Part shown: positions 46,369 through 61,044 of the stretch, one piece after another | How the letters are laid out: each line of letters begins with the position of its first letter | How positions within the stretch are numbered: the stretch's first letter is position 1 | Source of the DNA: Corallococcus macrosporus DSM 14697 | Lineage (GTDB): Bacteria; Myxococcota; Myxococcia; Myxococcales; Myxococcaceae | Direction of reading: 5' to 3' | DNA length: 64,000 nt | NCBI RefSeq assembly: GCF_002305895.1 | Contig: NZ_CP022203.1 | Coordinates: 1,156,501-1,220,500, forward strand | Translations under genes and position numbers: made by a program | The notes under the pieces: generated by a model | Databases searched by the model: none | Told to the model about the DNA's origin: nothing | What the model saw: the letters and a program-made list of their open reading frames with translations, nothing else

Positions 46369-47406
46369 ATGAGCCAGTACGATGACTTGTTCTTCCGTGT
46401 GAGCACCAGCGACACAGGCGACCGGAACTTCGGGCACGAGTCGACAGACACCATCGCGTATCAGTCGCCCGACATCATCCCCTATGGCACCCGTCCCACG
46501 ACCAATCCGGTGCAATTCTTTGCCGGCAACTATGGCTCGGATGTGGGGCAGAACCTGGTGGAGAGCGCCGACAACTACATCTACCTGCGCGCCAGGAACC
46601 TGGCCGGTGAGGCCCGGTCCGGGAGCGTGTCGCTGTATGCCGTGCCGGCGAACCTGCTCCTGTACCCCTACCTGTGGGCGGGCAACGAGCTGCAGACCAG
46701 CGACAAGAACGTCGACAACGGGGCCCTGAACGTCATCCAGGCCGGCAGCGGCCAGATTGCGGTGACGGACAACCCCTTCGTCTGGAGAGCCCCCACGCCT
46801 GACCACTACTGCCTGGTCTCCCGGGTCTCGAATGCGACGCACCCGAACCCCGTCCCCACCGCGGCCCTGGGGGACATGAATGCGCTGACGGAGTTCATCC
46901 TGGACAACCCAGGGTTCGGATGGCGGAACGTCACCATCGTCGATGCCAACAAGCCGGACTACACCACCAAGGGCATCGGCTTCGAGCAGGGGACCGAGGA
47001 TGCGATGGTCACCTTCGACATCAAGTGCGTGAACGTCCCCGCGGGGGCGAGCGTCGCCTTCTCGGCCGGGACGCCGGGGCCCTCGCCCCTCATCGACCTG
47101 GGGGAGACGACGGTGCCCCAGACGTCTCCGGACCAGAACGGCAACTACAACTGGCACACGGGCATCGACTGCCTCGTGCGGGCGAACTACAAGACGACCA
47201 TCGACTATTCGTACTGGTCGCATGGCCTCGCGCCGCTGCCGGGGATGACCATCACGCTCCGGGTCCTCCCGTTCGTCGCCGCCGACCACCGCCTCTACGG
47301 CCGGCTCTTCACGCCCGAGCAGCTCGGGCTGTCTCCCGAGCGGTGCGCGGCGCTGGCGGGCAAGCGGGGCATCGTGCTCGGCTCCCACACCACCGTCTTC
47401 CGCTGA
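46369..47406 (+). CDS. Unrecognised beta-rich protein next to the LodA operon
   Basis: A 345-residue protein that I do not recognise. ATG 46369 (MSQYDDLFFRV) follows AGGAG by about 10 bases; an earlier frame start lacks support. Residues about 25-85 look like a CARDB/Ig-like strand pattern (SPDIIPYG, NYIYLRARNLAG, SVSLYAVPANLLLYPYLW). A middle region has many Asn/Asp/Gly turns, and a short C-terminal helix reads LFTPEQLGLSPERCAALAGK. There is no signal peptide or membrane helix. It converges on the pentaheme gene with 90 bases between. Composition is visually less GC-extreme than in the flanks, like the lod genes. Confidence 0.75.
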   Translation: MSQYDDLFFRVSTSDTGDRNFGHESTDTIAYQSPDIIPYGTRPTTNPVQFFAGNYGSDVGQNLVESADNYIYLRARNLAGEARSGSVSLYAVPANLLLYPYLWAGNELQTSDKNVDNGALNVIQAGSGQIAVTDNPFVWRAPTPDHYCLVSRVSNATHPNPVPTAALGDMNALTEFILDNPGFGWRNVTIVDANKPDYTTKGIGFEQGTEDAMVTFDIKCVNVPAGASVAFSAGTPGPSPLIDLGETTVPQTSPDQNGNYNWHTGIDCLVRANYKTTIDYSYWSHGLAPLPGMTITLRVLPFVAADHRLYGRLFTPEQLGLSPERCAALAGKRGIVLGSHTTVFR

Positions 47407-47496: not shown

Positions 47497-50400
47497 TCAG
47501 CGCTTCGTCACCCGGGCCTCACCCAGGACCATGGACCAGTTGTTCATGACCTCGGTGGGTTGAGAGGGGCCGTAGGTCTGGGCCTGCATGGGCGTCTTCG
47601 TGTTGAGGTGGCTGCTCATGTAGATGAGCCGCTGCATCGCGGGGCCCGGCGGGTTGTTGTCCTTGAGCGCGTCCTTGAACCGCGCGCCGAGGTAGCCCGG
47701 CGGGATGCTCTGGTAGTTCAGCCGGACCCGGACGGAGGCCCACGTGGGAATCTCGGACAGGGGGACCTGGTACACCAGCGTGTCTTCCCCCTCGGCTTCC
47801 CTGGCGCGGTTGCCGCTGGGGTAGTCCGGGTCACTCTCGATGCTGGGTTGGCCGCTCTGCACCTCGCTCAAGGGCGCCGTGAGCTGGGCCAGTTGGTAGA
47901 GGTCCAGGCCCAACTGCAGCTCTCCAGGTTGGCGGAGGCTCGCTGGCTTCCAGCCGGCGGGGAGGATTCGGTTGTCCTTCACGTCATGGAACTGCTGGAG
48001 CTCCAGGCTGGTGACCCGCTTGAGGTCGTCGACGACGCGGACCTCGTAGATTTGGACCTGGTCCTGCCGCTGGAGGGTCTGGAAGTGCGGCTGGAGCTGG
48101 CTGGGGTCGGATGAGAACTCGCTGGCGAGGATGTTGTCGCCATTGGCGTTGCAGCGGCCATTGCAGATGGCGCCTTGCGCGTTGGGCTGCCCGGAGGCCC
48201 AGAGCACCGTGCCGGACGCATCCAGGACCTCGAACTGGATGAACGCCCGGCGGAAGCCCGCGCCGCTGGGGAACTTGTGGCCCGCGTTGTTGATGAGGGT
48301 GACGGGGACGTTCAGCCTGTCGTACTCGATGGACGGGTCGCCCAGGGAGAGCTGCACCGCGGGGAGTGTCGGGTCGTAGGAGCCCTGGGCCGTGCTGTAC
48401 GCGAGGTCCAGGATGGACTGCTCGGCGTTGAGCAGGTTCTGCGCGACCACGTAGTTCCGCCTGGCGTCCGTGAGCGGGGCGATGGTGCCGTCGGGGAAGC
48501 GCAGGGCGAGAAAGAGGTCGTCCAGGAGGAGCGTCTCGCCGCTCCTGGCGGTGAAGCCGAGCTCGAGCCGGCGGAGGTCCGCGCCCACGGGCATGTTCGC
48601 CTGAAGGGGTTGCCACCTGGACTGGCCCGGCGTGGCCGCGAGCGGAGGCGAGGTGGACGCCAGGGCGTCTTGCGCCTTGTAGGTGCGCACGACGAGCTCC
48701 CCGCAGGAGAGCCTGTCACACCAGCCGGTGGCGCCCCAGATGAGGGTCGTCTTGTCGCCGCCCTTCTGGAGGGCGTCCTGGTAGCGGGTGAGGTCGATGC
48801 GCAGCGTCGAGGTGCCCTCGCTGAGCTGGAAGAAGTAGCGGCCATGGCTCGGGCGGACGGGGTGTCCCTGCGCGCCGGTGAGCGTCTGGACGGCGGCGAT
48901 GGCGCTCTGCTGGCTCCAGCCCGCGGTGTTGCCGTCCTCCGCGCCCGGATTGGGGACGAGGTTGGGCGTGCGGTTCAGGATGTCGGGGGATTGGAGGTAG
49001 GGCGGGACGCGCGAGTCGGGAGACAGGTAGAAGTCCAGCCCGAGCACGTCCGGGAACTGCTGGAACATCTCGTGGACGAACAGGTTGATGCCCAGCAACG
49101 TGTGCCGGTTGTACTCACGCGCCACCACTGGCGGGCTGCCTTCGTAGAAGGGGGCCAGGTCGTCGTTGCGCTGCGCCACGTGCACGCGCTTGTCGTGCGG
49201 TGATTCCGGCGCGGTGAGCGGCATGTGGCAGCTCTGGCACGACGTGTTGGCGCCGGGATAGCCGCTGTTGAGCCACTCGAAGTAGGTGGTCTGCTCGTAG
49301 GCGAGCGCGACGCAGGGGTCCTTCGTGAAGTCGCCGTCGGTGCGGAAGGTCGTCTGGCTGTCGTCGCAGCTCGCGGGGCGTTCGTAGCCGAAGTTCGCCT
49401 CCGTGATGGGCATGCCGGGCCTGTAGTTGGAGGGGACCTTGGGGAGGATGACGACATGGCAGGCGCCGCAGACCATGGAGTCGCGCAGGTAGCTGTGTCC
49501 GTCCACGTGCGCCGCGGTCTCCAGGTTCAGCCCCGCCGCGGCCATGGGCTTCGCGTTGAGGCCGACGTCAGGCCCGACGATGGCGCCCGGGCGCAGGTTC
49601 ATGGACGCGGTGAAGGGGAAGGACGGCGGTGTCTGCGTCCGCTTCTCCTCCTGGCTGACCAGCCGGTCCGAGATGGCCGTGGGGCCGAAGAGCGCTCCGT
49701 CCGAGCCATAGAAGAGGCTGTAGTCGGTGCCATTCCAGGGCTGGCCCTCCGAAGGCGCCATGGCGTGGCAGACGCTGCAGGAGAGCCCGTCCCGCGCCAG
49801 CGCGCCGTACACCGCGTTCCGCGGCTGCGTCTCGGAGACGTCGGGGAACGGATTCTCGTAGGGCGCGCCCTCCGGCGTCGCATAGAGGGTGTAGTGGTCG
49901 AACTGCACGTGGTTCGACAGGGCCTGCCGTTCCGCCAGCGGGGAATGGCATCGCAGGCAGAGCTGGTCCACCTGGTTGGGCTGATGCGGAGACAGTGAGC
50001 GGGTCGTCTCCACCTGGGCGAGGAAGACCGGGTCCCTGCCCGCCAGGGCCTTGATGGAGCCGCTCCAGTCTCCGAAGGGGGACCAGTTGGCGGACAGGTT
50101 CATGGGGCCCGCGCCGCCGTCCGCCCAGAGGCTGTTGACCGTGGGCTGCTGCCAGAACGCCATCTCCGGCAGGTCGCTGCCCTGGGCCTTCCAATCCGAG
50201 TCATGGCAGGACTGGCACACCAGGGAGGAGCTGAAGCTCTGGCTGCCGAGGTTCAGCCCGTTGTGCGCGATGTCCAGGTTCCGGTTGGGCAGCTTGACGA
50301 GCTCGCTGCTCTTGATTCGAGGGAGCTGGACGCCAAGCTGCTTCGTGTAGAAGTCGAGGAACGCCTGGGCGTCGTCGCTGGACTCGGCCAGGGGCTGGAG

Positions 50401-50595
50401 CAGGGCGTTGCCTCGCGGGAACACGGGGTAGGGCGGGGGGACGAGCCCATCCCCGGATGACGTGTCATCCGTGCCGCTGTCGCTCGCCGCGAGGACGGTG
50501 GGCGTGGGCTCCCGCTCGCTCGCGAGCAGGGCAACCGCGATGGCGCTCATGGCGCCGGCCGCGACAATCACATGACGTCGATACGTCGTCTTCAT
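47497..50595 (-). CDS. Pentaheme c-type cytochrome linked to the LodA/LodB operon
   Basis: A 1032-residue exported multiheme protein. The ATG at 50595 overlaps the flavoprotein stop (ATGA) and opens a signal or anchor (YRRHVIVAAGAMSAIAVALLA). Five heme motifs are seen: CQSCH 127-131, CLRCH 213-217, CSVCH 273-277, CGACH 376-380 and CQSCH 453-457. The heme-free C-terminal half has a carbohydrate-binding-like beta sandwich (NLVPNPGAEDGNTAGW, about 570-720) and a domain with NNAGHKFPSGAGFRR, as in other multiheme oxidoreductases. It probably takes electrons in the periplasm or at the surface. Coupling to the CTQ enzyme is inferred from the operon. Confidence 0.85.
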   Translation of the reverse strand: MKTTYRRHVIVAAGAMSAIAVALLASEREPTPTVLAASDSGTDDTSSGDGLVPPPYPVFPRGNALLQPLAESSDDAQAFLDFYTKQLGVQLPRIKSSELVKLPNRNLDIAHNGLNLGSQSFSSSLVCQSCHDSDWKAQGSDLPEMAFWQQPTVNSLWADGGAGPMNLSANWSPFGDWSGSIKALAGRDPVFLAQVETTRSLSPHQPNQVDQLCLRCHSPLAERQALSNHVQFDHYTLYATPEGAPYENPFPDVSETQPRNAVYGALARDGLSCSVCHAMAPSEGQPWNGTDYSLFYGSDGALFGPTAISDRLVSQEEKRTQTPPSFPFTASMNLRPGAIVGPDVGLNAKPMAAAGLNLETAAHVDGHSYLRDSMVCGACHVVILPKVPSNYRPGMPITEANFGYERPASCDDSQTTFRTDGDFTKDPCVALAYEQTTYFEWLNSGYPGANTSCQSCHMPLTAPESPHDKRVHVAQRNDDLAPFYEGSPPVVAREYNRHTLLGINLFVHEMFQQFPDVLGLDFYLSPDSRVPPYLQSPDILNRTPNLVPNPGAEDGNTAGWSQQSAIAAVQTLTGAQGHPVRPSHGRYFFQLSEGTSTLRIDLTRYQDALQKGGDKTTLIWGATGWCDRLSCGELVVRTYKAQDALASTSPPLAATPGQSRWQPLQANMPVGADLRRLELGFTARSGETLLLDDLFLALRFPDGTIAPLTDARRNYVVAQNLLNAEQSILDLAYSTAQGSYDPTLPAVQLSLGDPSIEYDRLNVPVTLINNAGHKFPSGAGFRRAFIQFEVLDASGTVLWASGQPNAQGAICNGRCNANGDNILASEFSSDPSQLQPHFQTLQRQDQVQIYEVRVVDDLKRVTSLELQQFHDVKDNRILPAGWKPASLRQPGELQLGLDLYQLAQLTAPLSEVQSGQPSIESDPDYPSGNRAREAEGEDTLVYQVPLSEIPTWASVRVRLNYQSIPPGYLGARFKDALKDNNPPGPAMQRLIYMSSHLNTKTPMQAQTYGPSQPTEVMNNWSMVLGEARVTKR

Positions 50596-51764
50596 GAGGT
50601 CACCTCGAGGGGCTGGGGGCGGCGGGGGGGCGCGGGGAGCGCGGGGGGGCCGGGCAGGGACTCCCACCGGTTCCTCCAGAAGGGCGCCTGGGGCCACCGC
50701 TGCTCCTGGCGGTAGTAGGCCCCTCGCGTCCGCTGATGTTCCTGGAACCGCTCGTTGAGCGTGGCTTCGTAGGTCTGGAGCGCCTCCAGGTCGCCGCGCA
50801 GGTAGCGCTCCAGGGCGTCGGCCGCCAGGAGCGCGGAGTCCAGCGCCTTGGTGATGCCCTGGGAGGACAGCGGGTCATAGGTGCAGGCGGCGTCACCGAC
50901 GGCGAGCCACTGTTCGCCCTGCATCCGGTCGAGCTGCCCGACGAGCACGGGCACCGCGACGAGCGGCTCGCTGGTGAAGTCACACACATCGAGCCGAGCG
51001 TGCGTCACGGGGGCCTGCTTCAGCAGGGCCAGCCAGGGCTCGGGGGTGGCCCAGCGCAAGCCGCGCAAGGAGTCCCCGTCGCCAATGAGCGCGACGACGA
51101 CGCGCCGGTTCGGCAGCAGCGCGGAGTACCACCAGCCCTCCGGGCAGGCCTCCACCAGCGCGTAGGTGGGGAAGGTCGCGTCATCCGGGAGCGTGAAGGC
51201 GCCATACACGGCGAAGCAGCGGTCGCTCACGAGCCGGCGCGCGCCCCGGGCAGAGGCGAAGGGCGCCTTCCAGCCGCTGGCATCCACGACGAACCGCGCC
51301 CGCAGTGTGCTGGGGCCCGATTTCGCGCGGGCGAGGTGCAGCAGGTAGCCGTCCCGCCCCAGCGCCTCCGCGCTCAGCAGCGTCGTCGTGCGAAGCACCC
51401 GCGCGCCCTGCCGGACGGCCTCAAGGCTCAGCCGCTCATCGAAGCGCGCCCGGTCCAGGTGCCACGCGGAGCCCCAGGGGGACATCAGCGTGTCATGGAA
51501 GCCCGGCTCCGCCTGCCCCCAGCACGCAGAGGTGCCGCGGGAGGCGAGGTGTCCGTCGCGCAGGAAGCTGCCCCAGACGCCGAGCCGCGACAGCGGCAGG
51601 CGGACATCCGGAGGCAGCGTCTCACCCAGCCGGGGCGCGTCGTACGCGGTGCGCTCGACGACGGTGACGGAGAGGAACGGCGCCTTGTCCCGCAGCGCCA
51701 CCGCCATGGCCGCGCCCGCGGGGCCTCCGCCGATGATGGCCACGTCGCAAGAGGACTCGCTCAC
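50592..51764 (-). CDS. LodB-type FAD-dependent maturase (tryptophan-halogenase-like flavoprotein)
   Basis: A 390-residue flavoprotein. The FAD dinucleotide motif is VAIIGGGPAGAA at residues 8-19; LGETLPP matches the flavin-halogenase-like superfamily, and the second FAD motif AVGDAACTYDPLSSQGI is near 290. LodB proteins act on the partner LodA in the cytoplasm to complete its cysteine tryptophylquinone cofactor. The pairing, with a 4-base GTGA overlap after the LodA-type gene, supports that role. A free-standing hydroxylase is the alternative. Confidence 0.88.
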   Translation of the reverse strand: MSESSCDVAIIGGGPAGAAMAVALRDKAPFLSVTVVERTAYDAPRLGETLPPDVRLPLSRLGVWGSFLRDGHLASRGTSACWGQAEPGFHDTLMSPWGSAWHLDRARFDERLSLEAVRQGARVLRTTTLLSAEALGRDGYLLHLARAKSGPSTLRARFVVDASGWKAPFASARGARRLVSDRCFAVYGAFTLPDDATFPTYALVEACPEGWWYSALLPNRRVVVALIGDGDSLRGLRWATPEPWLALLKQAPVTHARLDVCDFTSEPLVAVPVLVGQLDRMQGEQWLAVGDAACTYDPLSSQGITKALDSALLAADALERYLRGDLEALQTYEATLNERFQEHQRTRGAYYRQEQRWPQAPFWRNRWESLPGPPALPAPPRRPQPLEVTS

Positions 51765-53761
51765 GTGTGGCCTGCCTTGGGCCGCGCGGCGGCCTGCTGG
51801 CTGGGGTCCGGCTTGTACGTCCGCTCCACTTCGATGAACGTGGGCGCGGGCGGCATTCCTGGCCCGGCGTCAGGGCCTCGCTCGTTGGCGGGGGCGTCCG
51901 ACCGCTTGATGACGAAGCCCAGCTCGTTCCAGTGGAAGACCATGTCCTCGTCCACGTCGAAGTTCGACGGGGCCGGGCGGGTCCAGTAGTCCTGGTGCCA
52001 TTGCTGGTCGTCTCCCAGGTAGTTCACGTAGTAGGGCCGCTGGGCGGGCCACCACCAGAGGGACGTCTGCAGGACCGGCTGGTTGGAGCACTCGTTGAAG
52101 TCGGCTTGCCAGGGCAGCGCCATGTACTTGCTGGCATCCCCCGGCTCCAGGCCCAGCCCGTCGTGCGGGTTGACGTCCCACTGGAGCGGTTGACCCTCGG
52201 GCCTGACACGGTGCTTGAAGCGGAAGCCCGCGTCCGGGTCGTCCTGGAAGAAGTTCCCGTCCCGGGCAATCCACGTCATCTCGATGCCCGGGCAGAAGGC
52301 GCCGCCCACGCAGTTCTCCAGCACGGCGCGGTCCAGCAGCGCTCCCGGCGACGCGGTGGCCCTGGGCGGCGAGTGGTCGACCTTCCCGTCGCTGTATTGC
52401 TTGAGGAAGAAGTACTGGGTCCGCGTGAGCGTCAGGAACTTGCGGGGGAGGGTTTCGGTGATGGGGTTGTCGCCCGCCATCTTCGGCATGAGGTCCGGCG
52501 TGAGGACGTTGACGTCGGAGGGGTTCCGGATTTTGTGAAGGAAGCGGGGGCCCAGGTTCCCGCCCTGGATGGCGTCATGTTTGCCATTGCCGGTGGGGCC
52601 GACGTCCGCGACCCACTGGTAGACGGCGGGGCGGCTCAGGATGGGGAGGAGCTCCGCCTGGAAGTTGGGCGTGTAGTCCGTCTGGAACTGCCCGTCCTGG
52701 TAGAGCGAGGGGGCGAGGTTCTTCTGGGTGACGAAGGTGTCGTAGAGCGTGTCGTAGAGCGTGATGATGTTGAGGATTTGCGGCGCGTAGCCGGGCGGCC
52801 CCACCACCACCCACGCGGGGAACTCCACCTCGTGCTCCGAGTCGTCCTCCATGACCAGGGTCGCGGTCACGGGCCCGTCCGAGACGTCGTCCCACCAGAA
52901 GGTGTTGTTGGCGTACGTGTCCAGCCGGGGCTGGGGGTAGGCCATTTCGTGGATGAACTTCTTCGCCGCGCGCTGCTGGTCGCCGCCGAGGTCCAGGCTG
53001 GGGTCCGCGAGGACGGTGTCGACGGCGGCGTCGAAGGACTCCTGGGTGGCGTACCCGATGTCCGCGATGGACTTGAGCGCCTGGAGGATGTCCTGCGCCA
53101 GCGCGTGTTGCTTCTCCCAGCCCTCCAGCAGACCTGACGTGAGGTCGTAGTGCACCGACACGCCGGCCTTGCCGTAGCCGCCCACCGCGTGGAGGTGGCC
53201 CTGGGCATCCGTGACGAGCTTTCCCAGGCGGGTGATGTCGCTGCCTTCGGGGAGCAGGTTCGAGGGGTGGGCCGACGTCGCGGTCAGCGCGCAGTCCGCG
53301 GTGGTGGGCCAGCCGCCGGTGCCCCGGCAGGTGACGGTGCGCGGCCCCGCGTCGAGGATGAGCGCGTTGCGGTCATCCCCCAGGGTGCGTGGGTTTCGCA
53401 GCGGGTGCGGCTTGGGGGGATTGCCTTGCGGCGCATAGTTCCCGTCCGCGCCCTGCTGCTGCCGGAACTCGTACCAGGCGGCCTTCTTGTTGGCCAGGTG
53501 GACCGTCCAGCGGATGTCCTTGACGCCCCGCTCGCCCACTTGGACCGTGCTCAGGTACGCGCCGGACGCGTCGTAGGCGTGAATCTGGAAGCGCGCCGCT
53601 TGTCTGCGCACCGCCAGGTTGGCGTCGCGGAACCGCGTCACGGGGCCGCCGCTCACCTCCAGGGGCAGGCCTCCTGCCTCCTCGGGGCCGAGGTAGTAAT
53701 CCTCGCTGTCCCCGACGCGGGCCACGCCGATGGCCGGGTGAATCTTGTAGGTTGTGCTCAT
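51761..53761 (-). CDS. LodA/GoxA-family CTQ-dependent amino-acid oxidase or dehydrogenase
   Basis: A 666-residue enzyme of the LodA family, whose members oxidise amino acids (lysine, glycine) with a self-made cysteine tryptophylquinone. The family start KIHPAIGVARVGDSEDYYLGPE, the CVGGAFCPGIE block and PWQADFNEC...WWPAQRP are clear. Cys484 and Trp551 lie 67 apart, close to the Cys516-Trp581 pair of LodA, so they are the likely CTQ pair; Cys490 is an alternative. ATG 53761 has GAGGAG at good distance. There is no signal peptide, as in LodA. The substrate is unknown. It heads the operon and overlaps the LodB-type gene by 4 bases. Confidence 0.9.
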   Translation of the reverse strand: MSTTYKIHPAIGVARVGDSEDYYLGPEEAGGLPLEVSGGPVTRFRDANLAVRRQAARFQIHAYDASGAYLSTVQVGERGVKDIRWTVHLANKKAAWYEFRQQQGADGNYAPQGNPPKPHPLRNPRTLGDDRNALILDAGPRTVTCRGTGGWPTTADCALTATSAHPSNLLPEGSDITRLGKLVTDAQGHLHAVGGYGKAGVSVHYDLTSGLLEGWEKQHALAQDILQALKSIADIGYATQESFDAAVDTVLADPSLDLGGDQQRAAKKFIHEMAYPQPRLDTYANNTFWWDDVSDGPVTATLVMEDDSEHEVEFPAWVVVGPPGYAPQILNIITLYDTLYDTFVTQKNLAPSLYQDGQFQTDYTPNFQAELLPILSRPAVYQWVADVGPTGNGKHDAIQGGNLGPRFLHKIRNPSDVNVLTPDLMPKMAGDNPITETLPRKFLTLTRTQYFFLKQYSDGKVDHSPPRATASPGALLDRAVLENCVGGAFCPGIEMTWIARDGNFFQDDPDAGFRFKHRVRPEGQPLQWDVNPHDGLGLEPGDASKYMALPWQADFNECSNQPVLQTSLWWWPAQRPYYVNYLGDDQQWHQDYWTRPAPSNFDVDEDMVFHWNELGFVIKRSDAPANERGPDAGPGMPPAPTFIEVERTYKPDPSQQAAARPKAGHT

Positions 53762-58408: not shown

Positions 58409-58473
58409 GCGGCGGGCCGCGTCGCCACCAGGTGCTAGGGTGCCGTCCCTCTCTTCTTCGAGGGGTCGCCCGC

Positions 58474-61044
58474 ATGCGTCGCCTGCTGTCGTTGGGACTG
58501 TTGCTGCTCACCGCCACCGCCTGCTCCGGCGACGACGACGAGGACCCGAGGGAGCAGCCTCCCTCCCGGACCGGTCGCATCCAGGGGGCGCTGACGCCCT
58601 TCCAGAGCAGTGAGCGCTCCACGGGCGACGGCGCCTCCCGGACGGTGCGCTCGCCGTTTCGCGCGGGCGAGCTGGCGGCGCTGAAGGAGACGCTGCGAGG
58701 GCTGTCCGCGGGGCGCTCGCGTGGGGAGCAGGTGGCGCCGAAGCGCGTGCCGGGGCTCTCCATCGTCCCATGGGCGCCAGGCCATGCGCCGCTCGAGCGC
58801 GCCTCCCGCGAGGACCCCACGATTCCGGGGGAGGTCATCCTCCGCTTCGAGGAGGCGGGCCTCTCACCGGAGCGCGTGCTGGCGGCGGTGCGGCGCCCGG
58901 GCTTCCGCGCGGTGCACAAGGGCTACGCCAGCGAGTACGTGCACCTGGTGGGCTACGAGCCGCTGGACGGCGAGGCGGTGACGGCCGCGAAGACGCAGGC
59001 GTGGGCCGCGCGGCTCGCCCAGGTGCCGGGCGTGACGTACGCGGTGCGCAACGAGCGGATGCGGGCGGCGGCCGCGCCGGATGACCGGGGCTACAGCCTC
59101 CAGTGGCACTACCCCACGCTCAACCTGCCGGCCGCGTGGGACCTGGCGCCGGACGCGTCCAGCGTCGTGGTGGCCGTCATCGACAGCGGCGTCGTTCCGC
59201 ACCCGGACCTGACGAACGTGCTCCCGGGTTACGACATGATTTCGGACCCGGAGAACGCGGGTGACGGCGACGGCCGGGACAGCGACCCGCGGGACGAGGG
59301 CGGGGACACGCCCAGCGGCGGCTCGACGTGGCACGGCTCGCACGTGGCGGGCACCATTGGCGCCAACACGAACAACCAGGAGGGCGTCGCGGGCGTGGCG
59401 TGGAACGCCCGGCTGCTGCCGGTGCGGGTGCTGGGGAAGAAGGGCGGCACGAGCTTCGACATCGCGGCGGCCCTCACCTGGGCCACCGGCGGCAGCGTGC
59501 CGGGCGTGCCGGACAACCCCACCCCCGCGAAGGTGGTGAACATGAGCCTGGGGGGCAGGGCGCCGCCGCAGGCGCTGTACCAGGACGCCATCGACGCGGC
59601 CCTGGGGCGAGGGGCCATCATCGTCGTCGCCGCGGGCAACGAGGACGTGGACGCGCGCAACAGCACGCCGTGCAACCAGCAGAACGTCATCTGCGTGGGC
59701 TCCACCAGCCTGGCGGGCCAGCGCAGCAGCTTCTCCAACTTCGGCGTGGACGTGGACGTGGTGGCGTCCGGCGGGGAGATGCGCGAGGACCTGAACGGCG
59801 ACGGCTACCCGGACGGCGTGCTGTCCACGGTGCTGGATGAGAACGGGCAGCCGGCCTATGCCTTCTCGCAGGGCACCAGCATGGCGGCGCCGCACGTGGC
59901 GGGCGTGGTGGCGCTGATGGCGGCGTCGCGGCCGGACCTGGATGCCGCGACGGCGGAGGGCATCTTGAAGGAGACCGCCACGCCGCTCACCAACGCGCAG
60001 TGCCCGGAGGGCTGTGGCGCGGGGCTCGTCAACGCGCTCGCGGCGCTGGCCCGCATCTCCAACGAGGACCCGGGCTCCCTGGACCCGCGGCTCAACGTGA
60101 CGACGTCCACGCTGTTCTTCCGGGGCAGCGGCACGCAGCAGCTCATCCTGAGCAACGTGGGCGGCAACCGGGGCGGCGACCTGATGGTGACGGCCACCAA
60201 GAGTGGGCCCAATGAAGCGGCGGTGTCGTTCCCGCAGGGGAACACGGTGCGCGTGCCCGCCTTCGGCTCGGCGCCGCTGGCCGTGGCGGTGGATGCCGCC
60301 GGGCTGCCCGCGGGAGACACGGTGGTGACGTTGAGCCTGGTGGGCTCGGGCACGTCGGGGGCGGCGACGGTGGCGGTGAAGATTGGCGTGGCGGGCGCTG
60401 CCAGCGACCTGGACGCCTTCGTCGCGTTCGTGTGGCAGGACGCGCGGGGGGAGTGGCAGACGTCCGAGGATGCCGTCGCGATTGCGCCCGCTTCGGCGAA
60501 CTACGCGTACAGCATCTCCCTGACGCCGCGCACGTACTACGCGCTGGCCACCATCGACGACGACCAGGACGGCAACTTCTTCGAGGACGGCGAGCGCACC
60601 GGCTACTGGCGCAACGTGGACGCCTTCGAGCCGCTGTTCGTCGAGGAGGGGGAACGCATCACCGACGTGAGCTTCGACCTGATTCCGCTGGCGCCCATCG
60701 ATGACGACCCGGCGCTGGTGGTGGGCAGTGCTTGCGGCTCCAACGGGGACTGTCCCGGGGGCGTGTGTGTGACGGACTATCCGGGCGGGTACTGCTCCAT
60801 GGACTGCACCACGTCGGCGTGTCCGGCGGGCTCGCGGTGCTACATCGTGGACTCCGCTTCCGGGCTCAAGGCCTGCCTGGCGACCTGTTCACGCCAGGTG
60901 GGGACGGGGCAGGGGGACTGCCGCTCCGGGTACGTCTGCTACAGCGACGGCACGGGCTCTGGTGCGTGCCAGCCCAACTGCCGCACCTCCGGCCTGTCGT
61001 GCGGTGGGGGCCGGACGTGCCTGGCCACCGGCTTCTGCCAGTGA
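58474..61044 (+). CDS. Subtilisin-family (S8) serine protease lipoprotein
   Basis: An 856-residue secreted protease. ATG 58474 opens a signal with a lipobox-like end LLTATAC (Cys20). A pro-region precedes the catalytic domain (about 205-530). The triad is Asp in VIDSGV, His in WHGSHVAGT and Ser in GTSMAAPHV, with the oxyanion Asn in AAGNED. After it come a beta-sandwich region and a Cys-rich C-terminal region of about 110 residues (CGSNGDCPGG, CSMDCTTSACPAGS, CGGGRTCLATGFC) that resembles disulfide modules in other myxobacterial surface proteins. It is probably outer-membrane attached and used in predation or matrix turnover. Confidence 0.92.
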   Translation: MRRLLSLGLLLLTATACSGDDDEDPREQPPSRTGRIQGALTPFQSSERSTGDGASRTVRSPFRAGELAALKETLRGLSAGRSRGEQVAPKRVPGLSIVPWAPGHAPLERASREDPTIPGEVILRFEEAGLSPERVLAAVRRPGFRAVHKGYASEYVHLVGYEPLDGEAVTAAKTQAWAARLAQVPGVTYAVRNERMRAAAAPDDRGYSLQWHYPTLNLPAAWDLAPDASSVVVAVIDSGVVPHPDLTNVLPGYDMISDPENAGDGDGRDSDPRDEGGDTPSGGSTWHGSHVAGTIGANTNNQEGVAGVAWNARLLPVRVLGKKGGTSFDIAAALTWATGGSVPGVPDNPTPAKVVNMSLGGRAPPQALYQDAIDAALGRGAIIVVAAGNEDVDARNSTPCNQQNVICVGSTSLAGQRSSFSNFGVDVDVVASGGEMREDLNGDGYPDGVLSTVLDENGQPAYAFSQGTSMAAPHVAGVVALMAASRPDLDAATAEGILKETATPLTNAQCPEGCGAGLVNALAALARISNEDPGSLDPRLNVTTSTLFFRGSGTQQLILSNVGGNRGGDLMVTATKSGPNEAAVSFPQGNTVRVPAFGSAPLAVAVDAAGLPAGDTVVTLSLVGSGTSGAATVAVKIGVAGAASDLDAFVAFVWQDARGEWQTSEDAVAIAPASANYAYSISLTPRTYYALATIDDDQDGNFFEDGERTGYWRNVDAFEPLFVEEGERITDVSFDLIPLAPIDDDPALVVGSACGSNGDCPGGVCVTDYPGGYCSMDCTTSACPAGSRCYIVDSASGLKACLATCSRQVGTGQGDCRSGYVCYSDGTGSGACQPNCRTSGLSCGGGRTCLATGFCQ

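What the first reader, a model, noticed from the sequence alone, without database searches (positions are those of the whole stretch)
47497..53761. LodA-LodB operon with a pentaheme cytochrome: a possible CTQ electron-transfer system
Three genes with 4-base overlaps encode a LodA/GoxA-type enzyme, a LodB-type maturase and a 1032-residue cytochrome with five intact CxxCH motifs. Known LodA and GoxA enzymes are described mainly as oxidases using O2, while quinohemoprotein amine dehydrogenase, another CTQ enzyme, feeds electrons to hemes. The linkage here suggests a LodA-family enzyme that hands electrons to a large periplasmic or surface heme protein with a carbohydrate-binding-like domain. The translational coupling is seen; electron transfer is inferred.
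Basis: partly seen in the sequence, partly recalled or inferred. Interest (0 to 1): 0.72.

Follow-up and report, generated by a model that had tools for sequence, protein, structure and literature searches.

The report
Amine-oxidizing enzyme paired with five-heme cytochrome
In some myxobacteria, an enzyme family known for making hydrogen peroxide from amino acids is inherited as one block with a large exported five-heme protein, which suggests that it hands its electrons to a heme chain rather than only to oxygen; the link is firm in the genomes but untested at the bench.

Summary
In detail: lodA (666 aa), lodB (390 aa) and a 1032-aa cytochrome with five CxxCH motifs lie on the minus strand with two 4-base overlaps. 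The triplet occurs in all 18 myxobacterial genomes with an orthologous LodA (145 searched in the order), and the orthologous cytochrome occurs in only those 18 of 195 genomes of the phylum. The cassette sits at different sites in different genera, and the three gene trees largely agree. In six sister species lodA and the cytochrome are both gone while lodB, which lies between them, survives. Two other LodA groups have unrelated c-type heme genes directly upstream: a diheme protein in a second myxobacterial clade and a one-motif protein in two gammaproteobacteria. Sampled loci that score as true LodA or GoxA, the characterized oxidases, show no heme gene. I favour electron transfer from the quinone enzyme to the cytochrome (about 50%). 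One problem is unsolved: this LodA has no signal peptide, while the cytochrome is exported. Electron transfer, heme loading and CTQ formation are all inferred. It is a new variant of the LodA/LodB system; I found no report of a LodA-cytochrome operon in the held papers.

The parts
51761..53761 (-). lodA: LodA/GoxA-family CTQ enzyme, 666 aa, no signal peptide
   Evidence: PF17990 and PF18417 above cut-off; 17-row alignment; coordinates
52049..52102 (-). codons of D554, C558 and W571, aligned with LodA D512, C516 and W581 (predicted CTQ site)
   Evidence: alignment to PDB 2YMW/3WEU; invariant in 17 orthologs; the W match rests on a weak segment
50592..51764 (-). lodB: flavoprotein maturase, 390 aa, 4-base overlap with lodA
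   Evidence: best NCBIfam match LodB maturase, 257 bits, under its equivalog cut-off of 400; Trp_halogenase and FAD_binding_3 domains
47497..50595 (-). pentaheme c-type cytochrome, 1032 aa, 4-base overlap with lodB
   Evidence: five CxxCH, invariant in 17 orthologs
50470..50595 (-). signal sequence region of the cytochrome, about residues 1-42; lipobox-like in five orthologs
   Evidence: read from the N-termini; no signal-peptide predictor was run
49225..50217 (-). heme region: CxxCH at 50217-50203, 49959-49945, 49779-49765, 49470-49456 and 49239-49225; K182 codon at 50052-50050
48490..48978 (-). CBM-like beta-sandwich, residues 540-702
   Evidence: AlphaFold segment of pLDDT about 70-90 and VIA matches Z up to 14.6
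48262..48294 (-). GHKFPSGAGFR motif with H773, a likely distal heme ligand
   Evidence: invariant in 17 orthologs and H773 in 14 of 14 distant relatives; aligns with PDB 5ZE8
46369..47406 (+). orf4: convergent gene of unknown function that travels with the cassette
   Evidence: strong matches only in 13 of the 18 cassette genomes; no Pfam or NCBIfam match

Best explanation
The cassette encodes a quinone-enzyme electron-transfer unit. Step 1 (established for the family, inferred here): LodB, a flavoprotein, completes a cysteine tryptophylquinone in LodA from C558 and W571. Step 2 (inferred): LodA oxidatively deaminates an amino acid or other primary amine; the substrate is unknown and probably not lysine. 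Step 3 (inferred): the reduced CTQ is reoxidized by the exported pentaheme cytochrome, so the enzyme works wholly or partly as a dehydrogenase. Step 4 (inferred, weakest): the electrons leave along the hemes at the periplasmic or outer face, where the CBM-like domain may hold the protein to glycan. Shown here: the operon, conserved CTQ residues, five conserved heme sites, a signal sequence, and joint inheritance of lodA and the cytochrome. Not shown: CTQ formation, heme loading, co-localization, electron transfer, substrate.
For: The triplet is conserved in 18 of 18 genomes with the orthologous LodA and the cytochrome is found only there. Gene trees agree and the genomic sites differ between genera. 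lodA and the cytochrome are lost together around a retained lodB in six genomes. CTQ residues and all five CxxCH are invariant. Two other LodA groups have unrelated c-type heme genes directly upstream in the operon, while sampled loci scoring as true LodA or GoxA have none. Five invariant candidate distal ligands (K182, H234, H498, H508, H773) for five hemes fit electron transfer rather than catalysis. CTQ feeding c-type hemes is known in QHNDH (PMC7876137).
Against: No LodA of this clade has a signal peptide, while the cytochrome must be periplasmic or outside to carry heme c. The family's characterized members use O2. Twelve of 15 plasmid LodA loci show no heme partner, so a cytochrome is not generally needed. 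All cassette carriers belong to one bacterial family. No structure of the complex could be predicted.
Confidence: 0.5

Rival explanations
1. LodA is an ordinary H2O2-producing oxidase, used against competitors or prey, and the cytochrome removes peroxide or otherwise protects the producer.
For: H2O2 from LodA-type enzymes kills cells and shapes biofilms (PMC4699246). Some group III LodA proteins are fused to a catalase-fold heme-binding domain (PMC4417212). A diheme oxidoreductase (DHOR, putative peroxidase) lies near LodA in Azospirillum. Myxobacteria are predators (general knowledge).
Against: The five hemes have enough invariant candidate distal ligands to be six-coordinate, which does not suit a peroxidase. 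The cytochrome has no peroxidase domain match.
Confidence: 0.18
2. The cytochrome takes part in CTQ biogenesis, as an electron acceptor for the last oxidation step or in place of a MauG-like enzyme.
For: MauG is a diheme protein that completes TTQ, and hemes have been proposed for the last oxidation of CTQ in QHNDH (PMC7876137). Other LodA clades have diheme partners.
Against: LodA and GoxA mature with only their flavoprotein LodB or GoxB. LodB acts inside the cell (PMC2855505), whereas the cytochrome is exported.
Confidence: 0.14
3. The cytochrome works in the same pathway but on another step, for example oxidation of the product or a separate surface redox reaction, without direct contact with LodA.
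For: Distant relatives of the cytochrome occur without LodA, one of them near an Nqr/Rnf-type complex in Paracoccus. Topology does not place LodA beside it.
Against: lodA and the cytochrome are always found together, and different LodA clades have unrelated heme partners.
Confidence: 0.13
4. The neighbourhood is an accident of shared ancestry with no functional meaning.
For: All carriers are from one family of myxobacteria, so the genomes are not independent.
Against: The cassette sits at different sites across genera, and lodA and the cytochrome are lost together around a retained lodB.
Confidence: 0.05

Closest known systems
LodA-LodB, L-lysine epsilon-oxidase of Marinomonas mediterranea (PDB 2YMW, 3WEU)
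   Same: Same two domains, CTQ Cys and Trp and the nearby Asp conserved, lodB directly downstream, no signal peptide
   Different: Third gene for an exported pentaheme cytochrome; about 50 residues between the CTQ Cys and Trp are missing here; 334 bits against the LodA equivalog cut-off of 600
GoxA-GoxB, glycine oxidase (PDB 6BYW)
   Same: Same family and maturase type
   Different: GoxA has a twin-arginine signal (PMC4417212), scores far apart (183 bits against 750), and no cytochrome was seen beside the sampled goxA locus
Quinohemoprotein amine dehydrogenase (QHNDH, qhpABCDEFGR)
   Same: CTQ enzyme linked to c-type hemes; flavoprotein in maturation (LodB also matches QhpG, 171 bits against 240)
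   Different: CTQ sits there in a small crosslinked subunit made with a radical-SAM enzyme, and hemes are in the alpha subunit (PMC7876137). Here CTQ would sit in the large LodA fold and the hemes in a separate five-heme protein. What it works like may be similar; it is not a member.
Pentaheme cytochrome c552 (PDB 5ZE8) and the ExtKL-type multiheme cytochromes
   Same: Shared GHxxPxG region; weak sequence similarity
   Different: 435 and 423 residues against 1032; no CBM-like domain; ligand position 182 is His in 5ZE8, Met in 14 myxobacterial and Paracoccus relatives, Lys here
Group III LodA proteins fused to a catalase-fold domain
   Same: Heme linked to a LodA-family enzyme (PMC4417212)
   Different: A catalase fold in the same polypeptide, not a separate exported multiheme c-type cytochrome

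Membership tests
LodA/GoxA family (CTQ-dependent oxidases) | LodA_N and LodA_C domains | tested here: met
   196 and 134 bits, above cut-offs of 26.3 and 25
LodA/GoxA family (CTQ-dependent oxidases) | Cys and Trp of CTQ and the nearby Asp | tested here: met
   C558, W571, D554 aligned with C516, W581, D512; invariant in 17 orthologs
LodA/GoxA family (CTQ-dependent oxidases) | Adjacent LodB-type flavoprotein | tested here: met
   4-base overlap; best match LodB maturase, 257 bits
LodA/GoxA family (CTQ-dependent oxidases) | CTQ formed; O2 used and H2O2 made | not testable with these tools
   needs protein chemistry
L-lysine 6-oxidase LodA (equivalog) | NCBIfam NF038172 score of at least 600 | tested here: not met
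   334 bits; a true Pseudoalteromonas LodA scores 1132
Glycine oxidase GoxA (equivalog) | NCBIfam NF038173 score of at least 750 | tested here: not met
   183 bits; a true GoxA scores 1189
Quinohemoprotein amine dehydrogenase | CTQ in a small QhpC subunit beside QhpA, QhpB and radical-SAM QhpD | tested here: not met
   The predicted CTQ protein is a 666-aa LodA fold and no QhpA, B, C or D match appears among the scanned neighbour genes. The rest of the genome was not searched for qhp genes.
Quinohemoprotein amine dehydrogenase | QhpE protease nearby | tested here: not met
   The S8 protease at 58432-61044 scores 35 bits against 165
NrfA-type cytochrome c552 (PF02335) | Pfam cut-off and CxxCK catalytic heme | tested here: not met
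   13.7 bits against 24.1; all five motifs are CxxCH
OmcA/MtrC-type decaheme surface cytochromes | ten hemes and family score | tested here: not met
   8 bits against 209 and five hemes

The most novel reading that the evidence does not exclude
Many LodA-family enzymes are not oxidases by design but CTQ dehydrogenases wired to c-type cytochromes recruited several times from unrelated families (pentaheme, diheme, one-heme), and the known H2O2-making LodA and GoxA are only the branches without a heme partner.
Probability: 0.3. Interest if true: 0.78.

Novelty: new variant of a known kind. Interest (0 to 1): 0.6.

Why it matters
The LodA family is described as amino acid oxidases that make H2O2. 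A clade in which the enzyme is always inherited with a multiheme cytochrome makes the oxidase-or-dehydrogenase question directly testable in culturable bacteria, and would add a second, unrelated type of quinone-heme amine-oxidizing system beside QHNDH. The repeated pairing of LodA clades with unrelated heme proteins suggests a wider rule. Orphan lodB genes kept without any lodA point to another substrate for this maturase family.

Tried and rejected
AlphaFold2 of the cytochrome and of LodA with 17-row alignments gave low confidence (pLDDT 44 and 47); only the CBM-like domain could be used, so no heme geometry or docking was attempted. The one genome-contig scan found only four close relatives, all carrying this LodA, so genomes outside the phylum were sampled only through plasmids. 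Of the two plasmid relatives of the cytochrome, the Paracoccus gene has no LodA beside it; the Sulfurovum neighbourhood was not opened. The promoter and terminator scan is uninformative: no sigma-70-like sites, and terminator-like sites as often as by chance. Repeats around the cassette look like chance matches, so no mobile-element boundary was found. Chance adjacency is rejected. QHNDH membership is rejected, as the enzyme has the LodA domains. A catalytic NrfA-type role is not favoured, as there is no CxxCK motif. Paper searches found no report of a LodA-cytochrome operon; most subscription papers are missing from that library.
Full report
OBSERVATION. The three genes are as described. lodA runs 53761-51761, lodB 51764-50592 and the cytochrome 50595-47497, all on the minus strand, with 4-base overlaps at both junctions. 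The enzyme has both LodA domains well above cut-off. The second gene's best NCBIfam match is the LodB maturase. The cytochrome has five CxxCH motifs in 1032 residues. The window lies in a complete 8.97 Mb genome of one contig.

COFACTOR SITE. Alignment with the solved M. mediterranea LodA puts C558 on C516, D554 on D512 and W571 on W581; C490 and Y283 fall on C448 and Y211. All five are invariant in 17 orthologs. The W581 match rests on a weak segment plus the shared WWP motif. About 50 residues between the CTQ Cys and Trp of LodA are missing here. The enzyme scores 334 bits against the LodA equivalog cut-off of 600 and 183 against the GoxA cut-off of 750. It is thus a family member, but neither a lysine nor a glycine oxidase by NCBI's rule, and its substrate is unknown. 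PMC4417212 noted that the group I gene of Corallococcus coralloides fits none of its subgroups.

CONSERVATION AS A UNIT. Among 145 genomes of the order, 18 including the window's have the orthologous LodA, at 51-81% identity; one of them, G081, has lodA split between two frames. In 17 the cytochrome follows lodB in the same order. In the eighteenth (G115) one contig ends in lodB and another holds the cytochrome at its end with orf4 behind it. The orthologous cytochrome occurs in exactly these 18 of 195 genomes of the phylum. Trees of the three proteins largely agree: distance correlations 0.94-0.98 and 10-12 of 13 splits shared. Within the genus the cassette sits between the same ABC-transporter and Lhr-helicase genes; in the other genera neither flank is found beside it, while the triplet is kept. 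A convergent gene, orf4, goes with the cassette in 13 of 18 genomes and has only weak matches elsewhere. All carriers belong to one family of myxobacteria, so these counts are not independent events.

A NATURAL DELETION. In six same-genus genomes (G101, G106, G116-G119) lodA, the cytochrome and orf4 are missing, but an intact lodB remains, 70-72% identical. In five of the six it lies between the same ABC and Lhr genes; in G106 it lies beside the ABC gene near a contig end. None of the six has a LodA_N domain anywhere in its genome. The orphan lodB nests within the lodB of this cassette type and shows dN/dS of about 0.25 between its two diverged lineages. So lodA and the cytochrome were lost together although lodB lies between them. 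This may be one ancestral event.

OTHER LodA CLADES. Twelve more distant myxobacterial LodA loci have a diheme protein gene directly upstream of lodA, 12-23 bp away, with a signal-like N-terminus and the motifs CD(T/S)CH and C(Y/F)RCH. A thirteenth locus (L107) shows the end of the same diheme gene at a contig edge. On plasmids of Xanthomonas sacchari and Pseudoalteromonas xiamenensis a protein with one CFxCH lies directly upstream of lodA. By blastp the pentaheme, diheme and one-motif types show no significant similarity to each other. In the LodA tree the pentaheme clade is one branch (support 100/98) and the diheme loci lie in a separate one. Loci scoring far above cut-off as LodA (Pseudoalteromonas NC201, 1132 bits) and GoxA (Martelella, 1189 bits) have no such gene nearby; the Martelella stretch is cut 0.65 kb upstream of goxA at the record start. 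Twelve of 15 plasmid LodA loci have no heme gene that looks like a partner, so the pairing is recurrent but not universal.

THE CYTOCHROME. All five CxxCH are shared with 14 distant relatives; so are H498, H773 and M351. In the LodA-linked clade K182, H234 and H508 are invariant as well. K182 replaces a Met found in all 14 relatives and aligns with a His in the solved pentaheme c552; that alignment is weak. Together K182, H234, H498, H508 and H773 offer one distal ligand per heme, which favours electron transfer over catalysis; this is inference from conservation. Residues 540-702 form a CBM-like beta-sandwich. Five orthologs have lipobox-like signals. One relative lies near an Nqr/Rnf-type complex in Paracoccus.

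MECHANISM. The best reading is that LodB matures CTQ in LodA, LodA deaminates an amine or amino acid, and the reduced quinone passes electrons to the exported pentaheme cytochrome. The weak point is topology: no LodA of this clade has a signal peptide. LodA of M. mediterranea is known to be extracellular while LodB stays inside (PMC2855505), and a Pseudoalteromonas protein that scores as true LodA begins in the same signal-less way. Export without a signal peptide is therefore possible in this family, by an unknown route. Rivals are peroxide removal, a part in CTQ biogenesis, or an indirect pathway link; the gene-neighbourhood evidence cannot separate these.

NOVELTY. CTQ with c-type hemes is known in QHNDH (PMC7876137), and catalase-fold fusions of group III LodA are known (PMC4417212). 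I found no report of LodA-family operons with c-type cytochromes in the held papers. I file it as a new variant of a known kind.

Noticed in passing
L134-L139 (G118, G101, G116, G117, G119, G106), counterpart of window 50592-51764: Intact orphan lodB kept under purifying selection (dN/dS about 0.25) in six Myxococcus-genus genomes with no LodA domain anywhere, with changes in otherwise conserved motifs (YDPLSSQG to HDPLSAQG or QDPLSAQG). It may have another substrate.
   Followed up: partly
L055, L058-L062, L064-L068, L071: A diheme protein gene, often with an extra variable N-terminal region, lies 12-23 bp upstream of a second LodA clade in myxobacteria.
   Followed up: partly
L120:5833-6957 and L122:5574-7004: Homologous proteins (44% identical) with one CFxCH lie directly upstream of lodA in a xanthomonad and a Pseudoalteromonas; one has a weak cytochrome P460 match.
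   Followed up: partly
window 46369-47406 (+): orf4 has no family match, is convergent to the cytochrome gene, and is confined to cassette genomes apart from weak matches.
   Followed up: partly
L119:3344-6933: In Azospirillum brasilense a divergent di-heme oxidoreductase (DHOR) and a ferritin-like gene precede the lodA-lodB pair.
   Followed up: no
L053:8484-10344 (G081): lodA is split between two frames: a frameshift or an assembly error, while lodB and the cytochrome stay intact.
   Followed up: no
L104:6975-9971, L105:8702-11596, L106:7777-10836, L107:4453-7360, L118:8900-11911: Six-heme relatives of the cytochrome, some with an N-terminal cytochrome P460 match; L107 carries one on the same short contig as a diheme-LodA-LodB set.
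   Followed up: partly
L034 (BNCN01000002.1): A record titled Comamonas sp. KCTC 72670 carries the cassette with the flanks of the window's own genus; the name is probably a mislabel.
   Followed up: no
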